Source: Trichosporon coremiiforme (taxonomy: Eukaryota > Basidiomycota > Tremellomycetes > Trichosporonales > Trichosporonaceae). From it: a stretch of DNA of 64,000 bases. Below, one piece after another: positions 60,809-61,848 of the stretch. A program made the position numbers and the translations under genes. The stretch covers positions 434,001-498,000 of the forward strand of contig BCJJ01000004.1 of the NCBI GenBank assembly GCA_039545355.1, read 5' to 3'. Each line of letters starts with the position of its first letter. Positions within the stretch are counted from its first letter, which is position 1. A model generated the notes under the pieces. That model had not been told where the DNA came from, did no database searches, and saw nothing but the letters and a program-made list of their open reading frames with translations.

Positions 60809-61848
60809 ATGGCGGCGAGCAGGGTATCACTACAGCAAGCCTCGGACCACTCTTCATGGGAGAGTAAGCTAGAGGCGGCCGAGGTTTCAAAGAGGTGAGT
60901 CCCTTCCCACGCACTGTTATAGCTCTTCTTCCGGATGAGACAATCTGCAAGTGGGAATCTCTCCTAAACCATTTGAGGACACCCCTTTATATTTGCACCT
61001 CTGAACCCTCTTTTCGATTCGCCTAATTCTGGTAGCAGAAGCTGACGTGACAGTGATCTCAATGCCCTGGTATTTGACTACCTGGTGGTTGAGGGATTTT
61101 CGGATGCAGCTGTTGAATTCGCCAGGGAGACTGGGATCCCGACTACAATCGACCAGGACATGATTCAGGAACGTATGGAGATCCGGCAGGCTGTCGAAGA
61201 CGGACGTGTGGAGGAAGCAGTGCGTCGCGTGAACGAGCTGGACCCCGAGGTGAGTTGCAACGCTCTGGTTTCCCCAATGATTAGAAAACTTCATGCACCA
61301 CGCTTAGCCGGCTTCGGCAAGGCCATGCGGAAAAACCGAACTTATCACAGACCTGATATGAGGGGAAACCAGATCTTGAGCGTAATGTGACGACGCTGAC
61401 TTGATAGATCCTTGATACGAATCCTCCGCTCTTATTTCACCTGTTCCTCCTTCGTCTGATCGAGCTCATCCGAGAGGACAAGGTTGACGAAGCGCTGCAG
61501 TTCGCTACACTCGAGCTGGCCCCAAGAGGCGCCCAGAATCCCGAGTTCTTGGCAGACCTCGAGAAGACCATGGCCCTGTTGGCGTTCCCTCATCTTGCTC
61601 GCGACGATCATCCCGCTGACCCTGCGTTCACCTCGATCACCCAGTTAATGAAACGCACACAACGGGTCAAGGTGGCAAAGGAGCTTAACGCTGCAATTTT
61701 GGAGAGCCAGGGGCAAGGCATGGAAACCAAGCTGGGTGGCCTTGTGCGTCTGATGTTATGGGGTGAGGAGCGCCTCAACAAGGCTGGCATCGGAGTCAAT
61801 GACGATCGCGGCCGCCAGTGGGCGGACATTGTACTTAACGATGCGTAA
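60809..61848 (+). CDS. GID8: GID/CTLH E3 ligase subunit Gid8 (TWA1)
   Basis: Scaffold subunit of the GID/CTLH ubiquitin ligase, which in yeast degrades gluconeogenic enzymes. Exons 60809-60894, 61054-61249 and 61408-61848 give 240 aa (human GID8 228). The order is LisH (ALVFDYLVVEGFSDAAVEFA, about 33-52), CTLH (QAVEDGRVEEAVRRVNELDP) and CRA (LFHLFLLRLIELIREDKVDE, EKTMALLAFP, LNAAILESQ). Each of the two introns is about 158 nt, four times longer than almost all others in the window. Intron 2 carries a candidate C/D snoRNA listed separately. GID8 is divergent from WRAP73 (212 bp apart). Confidence 0.95.
61265..61372 (+). ncRNA. Candidate intronic C/D box snoRNA (U25/snR56-like)
   Basis: Inside GID8 intron 2. 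A perfect 11-bp terminal stem pairs CTGGTTTCCCC (61265-61275) with GGGGAAACCAG (61362-61372). A C box (ATGATTA, 61277-61283) stands one base inside the left arm and a D box (ATGA, 61358-61361) touches the right arm. Both boxes differ from consensus (RTGATGA, CTGA) at the two positions that pair in the kink-turn, so G-C becomes U-A. Upstream of the D box, 61344-61355 (ATCACAGACCTG) is complementary over 12 nt to CAGGUCUGUGAU, which I recall as a universal 18S rRNA sequence. The fifth base before the D box faces the first G of CAGG, the site methylated under U25 or snR56 guidance in human and yeast (from memory). No clear D'/C' pair was seen. Confidence 0.72.

What the first reader, a model, noticed from the sequence alone, without database searches (positions are those of the whole stretch)
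61265..61372. Intronic C/D snoRNA in GID8 with a compensatory C/D box change
Seen: an exact 11-bp terminal stem, AUGAUUA one base inside it, AUGA directly before its 3' arm, and a 12-nt guide AUCACAGACCUG ending two bases before the AUGA. Known: in the C/D kink-turn the sixth base of box C (G in RUGAUGA) pairs with the first base of box D (C in CUGA). Here they are U and A, so pairing is kept although both boxes leave the consensus. The fifth base upstream of the D box faces the 18S G that U25 (human) and snR56 (yeast) guide. Standard searches requiring CUGA would miss it. Inference: GID8 is a snoRNA host gene.
Basis: partly seen in the sequence, partly recalled or inferred. Interest (0 to 1): 0.85.

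Follow-up and report, generated by a model that had tools for sequence, protein, structure and literature searches.

The report
Intronic snoRNA with swapped C/D pair
An intron of the GID8 gene of a fungus holds a small RNA that very probably directs chemical marking of two spots on the ribosome; its two recognition boxes both differ from the usual letters in a way that still lets them pair, a variant already described in other organisms.

Summary
It lies in intron 2 of GID8. A second GID8 copy in the same assembly carries the element with 1 difference in 108 bases, while fourfold sites of the two genes differ at 49 of 114 and the rest of the intron at 16 of 50. So it is almost certainly a working box C/D snoRNA, probably with two 18S targets; the searches made found no other U25-type gene in the assembly. 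The box change is not new: AUGAUU/AUGA with the same compensatory logic is published for cryptophyte nucleomorph snoRNAs, one predicted to guide the same U25 site; the Rfam consensus of C. elegans CeN56 shows it too. Apparently new are the host gene and the two-guide combination. Expression and methylation are untested.

The parts
60809..60894 (+). GID8 exon 1 (ATG at 60809)
   Evidence: spliced frame open for 240 aa
61054..61249 (+). GID8 exon 2 (LisH and start of CTLH)
   Evidence: Pfam LisH 2.1e-09; splice sites
61408..61848 (+). GID8 exon 3 (CTLH)
   Evidence: Pfam CTLH 4.4e-22; chains named GID8 homolog, best 2.7e-41
61250..61407 (+). GID8 intron 2, 158 nt, the snoRNA host; likely branch site CTGAC 61396-61400
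   Evidence: GTGAGT...TAG boundaries; branch site inferred by eye
61265..61275 (+). 5' arm of 11-bp terminal stem
61277..61283 (+). box C, AUGAUUA (U at position 6 instead of G)
61292..61301 (+). D' guide CAUGCACCAC, 10 Watson-Crick + 1 G.U with 18S, C61298 opposite G equivalent to yeast G1271
   Evidence: same letters as the guide in the Rfam snoZ221_snoR21b consensus
61303..61306 (+). D' box CUUA (degenerate)
   Evidence: position by N+5 register; inferred
61307..61318 (+). apical hairpin GCCG-GCUU-CGGC between D' and C'
   Evidence: fold
61325..61331 (+). candidate C' box AUGCGGA
   Evidence: 5 of 7 to RUGAUGA, by eye; inferred
61344..61355 (+). D guide AUCACAGACCUG, 12 Watson-Crick + 1 G.U with 18S; C61353 opposite G equivalent to yeast G1428
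61358..61361 (+). box D, AUGA (A at position 1 instead of C)
61362..61372 (+). 3' arm of terminal stem
61260..61264 (+). 5' side of predicted outer stem extension, pairs with 61379-61383
   Evidence: folds of both copies
61379..61383 (+). 3' side of predicted outer stem extension; changed in the other copy but still predicted to pair

Best explanation
A functional box C/D snoRNA, roughly 61265-61372, released from GID8 intron 2. After splicing and debranching the terminal stem brings AUGAUUA and AUGA together as a kink-turn in which the usual G6-C1 pair is replaced by U6-A1; Snu13, Nop58, Nop56 and Nop1 assemble and protect it. The D guide then directs 2'-O-methylation of the 18S G equivalent to yeast G1428 (human G1490), and the D' guide, with a weak D' box, that of the G equivalent to yeast G1271 (human G1328). 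Shown: anatomy, complementarity and register, conservation between two gene copies, host gene. Inferred: transcription, processing, protein binding, methylation, and use of the D' guide (less certain than the D guide).
For: Only C/D motif of its kind in the window; 1 of 300 shuffles has one with a stem of 8 or more. Against one outside 18S (from L026), the D guide scores -22.3 kcal/mol at its site and -13.6 at the next distinct site; the D' guide -19.9 and -14.8. Both sites are given as 100% methylated in yeast, Gm1271 by snR40 and Gm1428 by snR56 (PMC5199042 passages), with human and plant equivalents (PMC8817022 table). The second copy at G000:C2:1636429-1636536 differs at 1 of 108 bases against 49 of 114 fourfold sites and 16 of 50 in the rest of the intron. 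The one change is G-C to G.U in the stem. AUGA gives the U25/snR56 register and abuts the stem; the CUGA inside the guide does neither. The same boxes occur in GtNM-R12-14, found by inspection of nucleomorph small-RNA loci (PMC6461891 passages), and in the Rfam ceN56 consensus, an RNA reduced on depletion of C/D snoRNPs (PMC2442092 passages).
Against: No RNA-level data. No Rfam family reaches its gathering score anywhere in the window. The best Rfam match here, RF00300 at 19.8 of 44 bits, is at noise level: E 2.4 in 9 kb, another place in the genome scores higher (22 bits) and 13 of 14 prokaryote controls also give sub-threshold matches. The species' own intact 18S was not found, so pairing was tested on other eukaryotes' 18S plus one decayed fragment. 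Dinucleotide shuffles of the interior give a 12-nt match somewhere in 18S in 129 of 20000 and two stretches of 10 or more in 102 of 20000, so complementarity alone would not suffice; position and register carry weight. D' box CUUA lacks one sheared pair. A mismatch sits at guide position -2. Only two gene copies, from one genome, were compared, and the boxes are identical in both, so the box pair itself is not shown to covary.
Confidence: 0.92

Rival explanations
1. The true box D is the literal CUGA at 61353-61356, so the boxes are only half unusual and the target is five bases away.
For: CUGA is present five bases before AUGA.
Against: It would leave five unpaired bases before the stem, would mispair with box C (U6 against C1), would swallow the last three guide bases, and would aim at a G not among the yeast 18S ribose methylations listed around this site in the table passage seen.
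Confidence: 0.04
2. A structured intronic element that controls splicing or expression of GID8, not a snoRNA.
For: It is conserved, stably folded and inside an intron.
Against: It would have to acquire by chance C/D boxes in canonical geometry plus two guides aimed in register at two widely methylated 18S sites.
Confidence: 0.03
3. The near-identity of the two copies reflects a short gene-conversion tract, not selection, so conservation proves nothing.
For: Gene conversion is discussed for Trichosporonales hybrids (PMC8550739 passages).
Against: The near-identical tract closely matches the snoRNA (61257-61372, with divergence resuming on both sides); conversion has no reason to respect these borders. 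The other near-identical tract seen in this gene is a separate block in intron 1. Conversion would not remove the other evidence.
Confidence: 0.05
4. A real C/D snoRNA that uses only the D guide; the D' complementarity is incidental.
For: D' box CUUA lacks a sheared pair and no clean C' box was seen by eye; the Rfam RF00300 match that shares this guide is at noise level.
Against: 10-nt pairing in exact register to a conserved methylated G, with the same 11 letters as the plant snoZ221/R21b consensus. Non-canonical C'/D' motifs are the rule in yeast, with only 2 of 43 matching consensus (PMC8413462 passages).
Confidence: 0.2

Closest known systems
snR56 (yeast) / U25 SNORD25 (human) / AtsnoR19
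   Same: Guides the equivalent 18S G (PMC8817022 table). That the -5 register is the same in human U25 rests on its sequence as I recall it.
   Different: Rfam SNORD25 has no match at E up to 10 in this genome; non-consensus boxes; second 18S guide; GID8 host.
GtNM-R12 (Guillardia theta nucleomorph)
   Same: AUGAUU/AUGA compensatory boxes and a D guide predicted for the human G1490 / Arabidopsis G1431 site (PMC6461891 passages).
   Different: Cryptophyte nucleomorph; its authors saw no readily apparent homology to animal or plant snoRNAs; the G1271 site is not among its listed targets.
snR40 / U32-type guides and AtsnoR21 (Rfam snoZ221_snoR21b)
   Same: D' guide UCAUGCACCAC is identical over 11 letters to the Rfam consensus; AtsnoR21's target is the equivalent of yeast G1271.
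   Different: Only 19.8 of 44 bits, not above noise; here D' is CUUA, and the D half guides another site.
CeN56 (C. elegans, Rfam RF01643)
   Same: Consensus shows aUGAUua next to a CC stem and AUGA next to GG; reduced expression on C/D snoRNP depletion (PMC2442092 passages).
   Different: 15.7 of 60 bits only; no evidence of common descent or target.
Neurospora Nc CD19 and CD41
   Same: Fungal, intronic guides for the snR56 site (PMC2780460 passages).
   Different: Guide before D'; CD41's other guide aims at 26S; box letters not seen.

Membership tests
box C/D snoRNA (class) | Kink-turn core: two sheared G.A pairs and a pair between C position 6 and D position 1 | tested here: met
   By sequence only: UGA of box C and UGA of box D present; U6-A1 can pair. 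Three-dimensional folding not tested.
box C/D snoRNA (class) | Literal consensus RUGAUGA and CUGA (usual letters; not defining, since AUGAUU/AUGA RNAs are published as C/D snoRNAs) | tested here: not met
   AUGAUUA and AUGA; precedent PMC6461891 passages.
box C/D snoRNA (class) | Terminal stem directly flanking the boxes | tested here: met
   11 exact pairs, one base before C and none after D.
box C/D snoRNA (class) | Guide with the fifth base upstream of D opposite the modified nucleotide | tested here: met
   C61353 opposite the first G of CAGGUC; numbering check gave 159 bases as expected for U1269 to G1428, on a yeast stretch recalled from memory. That the nucleotide is modified in this species was not testable.
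box C/D snoRNA (class) | Stable RNA bound by Snu13, Nop56, Nop58, fibrillarin | not testable with these tools
   No RNA or protein-binding data.
Rfam SNORD25 (RF00054) | Score above the curated cut-off | tested here: not met
   0 matches at E up to 10 in the own genome, 66 of 675 candidates scored; not over the cut-off in the window either. Works like U25; not filed in its Rfam family.
Rfam snoZ221_snoR21b (RF00300) | Score above the curated cut-off | tested here: not met
   19.8 of 44 bits.
snR56/U25 functional class | Methylates the 18S G1428 equivalent | not testable with these tools
   Pairing only.
snR40/AtsnoR21 functional class | Methylates the 18S G1271 equivalent | not testable with these tools
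   Pairing only; D' box degenerate.

The most novel reading that the evidence does not exclude
One RNA is the fungus's sole guide for two widely methylated Gs of 18S rRNA (equivalents of yeast G1271 and G1428) that separate RNAs guide in the species whose tables were seen. And the U-A kink-turn pair is not a neutral oddity but a recurrent, selected form of U25-site guides, since it appears with a D guide for this same site both here and in a cryptophyte nucleomorph, either by convergence or as an old alternative lineage of the guide.
Probability: 0.15. Interest if true: 0.55.

Novelty: new member of a known kind. Interest (0 to 1): 0.36.

Why it matters
It adds a host gene outside the ribosome-biogenesis set (GID8, a subunit of the GID/CTLH ubiquitin ligase), shows that curated RNA models can miss a probable guide with paired box changes, and supplies a natural fungal case for testing whether the C6-D1 pair matters by pairing or by identity. 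It suggests snoRNA scans should accept G-C to U-A swaps in the C/D core. The mechanism itself is established.

Tried and rejected
Rejected: CUGA at 61353 as box D (wrong geometry and register).

Not found: a second U25-type or G1271-type gene. The 12-base guide occurs 11 times (7 forward, 4 reverse; reversed-pattern control 1 and 1): 2 are the GID8 copies, 1 is the complement of the rDNA fragment, and none of the other 8 has NTGA two bases on. ACAGACCTGNNNTGA has 6 exact hits, 2 of them the GID8 copies. With one mismatch allowed there are 142 hits (79+63) against 179 (81+98) for the reversed control, so chance level; only the 30 with loci were examined. ATGCACCANNNTGA has 11 exact hits against 3 for the control; all 11 were examined. 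A C/D scan (box C NTGATGA or NTGATTA, D 45-170 bases on, C6-D1 paired, stem of 5 or more) over these 41 loci plus 5 RF00300 loci found only the two GID8 copies. RF00054 gave 0 matches at E up to 10 while 12 of 14 prokaryote controls gave sub-threshold ones. Guides with more mismatches or other D' letters are not excluded.

Led nowhere: an intact own 18S (searches found only a decayed fragment; the covariance search never ran); relatives of the snoRNA in viral contigs (one search gave one hit, L017, printed with no C/D feature apparent by eye; none); a target for the intron 1 block. Kuhn 2002 and the fungal snoRNAome paper are not held, so whether this RNA is already catalogued there is unknown. 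Paper searches for GID8 with snoRNA (3 papers, listing only) and Trichosporon with snoRNA (7 papers; passages of two) showed no report of it.

Considered: that shared boxes with ceN56 or GtNM-R12 mean common descent; nothing here tests it.

Corrected on re-check: feature bounds were off by one or two bases; one search recounts them, and its numbers are used here.

Full report
What is there. The sequence at 61265-61372 is as described. With flanks the element folds at -42.8 kcal/mol, z about -4.2, 0 of 200 shuffles as stable; the second copy at -38.8, z -2.75, 2 of 200.

Chance. A scan for RTGATNA within two bases of a stem arm, NTGA directly before the complementary arm, 50-180 bases apart, both strands, found one hit in the window at minimum stems of 5, 6, 7, 8 and 11 bp, namely this one. 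Over 300 dinucleotide shuffles the mean number of hits was 0.39, 0.11 and 0.003 for stems of 5, 6 and 8, with at least one hit in 96, 30 and 1 of them. The 86-base interior matches one outside 18S over 12, 10 and 8 bases; shuffles of the interior reach 12 in 129 of 20000 and two stretches of at least 10 in 102 of 20000. What makes the pairing persuasive is that both long stretches also sit in register before D-type boxes and both aim at known methylated Gs.

Targets. The species' intact rDNA was not found: two pattern searches gave only a decayed 18S fragment near a telomere-like contig end, in which the 12-base D target is intact. I therefore used ten rDNA-bearing records of other, unidentified eukaryotes. 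The 12-base D target is in 9 of 10 and the 10-base D' target in 8 of 10; 8 of the ten were fetched with a word containing the D target and 2 with a word containing the D' target, so this shows that the targets are conserved, not independent hits. With AUGA as box D, C61353 faces the first G of CAGGUC; with CUUA as D', C61298 faces the second G of the GUGG in GUGGUGCAUG. On a yeast stretch recalled from memory the distance from the U two bases 5' of the latter to the former is 159, exactly 1428 minus 1269. Published tables give Gm1271 to snR40 and Gm1428 to snR56 in yeast, U232A and U25 in human, AtsnoR21 and AtsnoR19 in Arabidopsis, CD37 and CD1 in Dictyostelium (PMC8817022, PMC5199042; passages). 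Entamoeba likewise lists two RNAs (PMC3542256 passages). In those species the two sites have separate guides.

Conservation. A second GID8 gene lies on another contig of the same 42-Mb assembly. Between the copies the snoRNA differs at 1 of 108 positions, exon 2 at 25 of 196, exon 3 at 67 of 441, and intron 2 outside the snoRNA at 16 of 50: 2 of 15 upstream, where the 8 bases next to the stem are identical, and 14 of 35 downstream. Fourfold degenerate sites differ at 49 of 114 and amino acids at 5 of 241 positions including the stop. The probability of at most one change in 108 is 3.7e-25 at the fourfold rate and 4.2e-17 at the rate of the rest of the intron, treating sites as independent. The single change turns a G-C stem pair into G.U, and a predicted outer stem is retained with changed letters on its 3' side. 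This is strong evidence of constraint but not of covariation at the boxes, which are identical in both copies.

Uniqueness. A DNA search finds only the two copies. SNORD25 has no match at E up to 10 (66 of 675 candidates scored). The nine-base guide with an N-TGA box occurs exactly 6 times, 2 of them these copies; no other locus of the 46 scanned has C/D anatomy as defined. This does not exclude a diverged second guide. The Rfam RF00300 match, which shares the D' guide, should not be leaned on: genome-wide its best hit (22 bits) lies elsewhere, one of the two GID8 copies is listed second at 19.8 bits, and the window's own copy is not in that capped list (51 of 1549 candidates scored).

Host. 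Exons 60809-60894, 61054-61249 and 61408-61848 encode a LisH-CTLH protein whose best solved-structure matches are chains named GID8 homolog, 2.7e-41 and 7e-41.

Mechanism of the box change. In a C/D kink-turn box C position 6 pairs with box D position 1 (stated for these boxes in PMC6461891; otherwise general knowledge). PMC6461891 (passages) describes GtNM-R12-14 with AUGAUU and AUGA, calls the two substitutions compensatory, and reports that Kuhn et al. 2002 recovered L7 binding by changing both positions (that paper I did not see). GtNM-R12 is there predicted to guide, by its D guide, the human G1490 site, the same as here. The Rfam consensus of ceN56 shows the same letters and CeN56 has reduced expression after depletion of C/D snoRNPs (PMC2442092 passages). 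AUGA box D alone is reported in a small fraction of Dictyostelium and 2 of 41 Entamoeba snoRNAs (passages). The 4b:4n pair is one of the elements that tune kink-turn folding (PMC5689011, first of five parts of the text); equating it with C6-D1 is my reading. A published caution for D' boxes: in yeast U18 a D' box without a 5' C goes with methylation of two neighbouring nucleotides (PMC5389607 passages), so a box without a 5' C, like AUGA here, could also affect which base is marked. The variant is thus known and probably workable.

Verdict. A real, almost certainly functional C/D snoRNA of a known kind, with an already described box variant, a host gene for which the paper searches made showed no precedent, and a two-target combination not seen in the tables read. 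Untested: expression, processing, methylation.

Noticed in passing
60935-61003 (GID8 intron 1): A second near-identical block between the two GID8 copies (68 of 71 aligned columns, against 58 of 95 for the rest of the intron). It ends in CUGA and has GGAUGA near its start, but no terminal stem by eye, no unusual folding (z 0.85 and -0.14), no convincing rRNA match in ten outside records and only these two copies found in the genome. Possibly another small RNA or a regulatory element.
   Followed up: partly
61321-61328: GGCCAUGC in the snoRNA pairs over 8 bases with 18S GCAUGGCC, overlapping the D' target; it could be an accessory guide or chance.
   Followed up: partly
L002 1688-1835 (G000:C2, about 1.7 kb from the contig end): A decayed 18S rRNA fragment near a contig end made of TTAGGG/TTAGGGGG-like repeats, the only 18S piece found by the two pattern searches made in this assembly.
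   Followed up: partly
G000 whole assembly: 42.0 Mb with a second GID8 locus at 43% fourfold divergence: possibly a hybrid with two subgenomes (inferred from this one gene pair and the size), which would be useful for pairwise conservation scans of introns.
   Followed up: partly
Rfam RF01643 (ceN56): The shown parts of the ceN56 consensus read as a C/D snoRNA with the AUGAUUA/AUGA pair, although Rfam lists it only as sRNA (PMC2442092 passages).
   Followed up: partly
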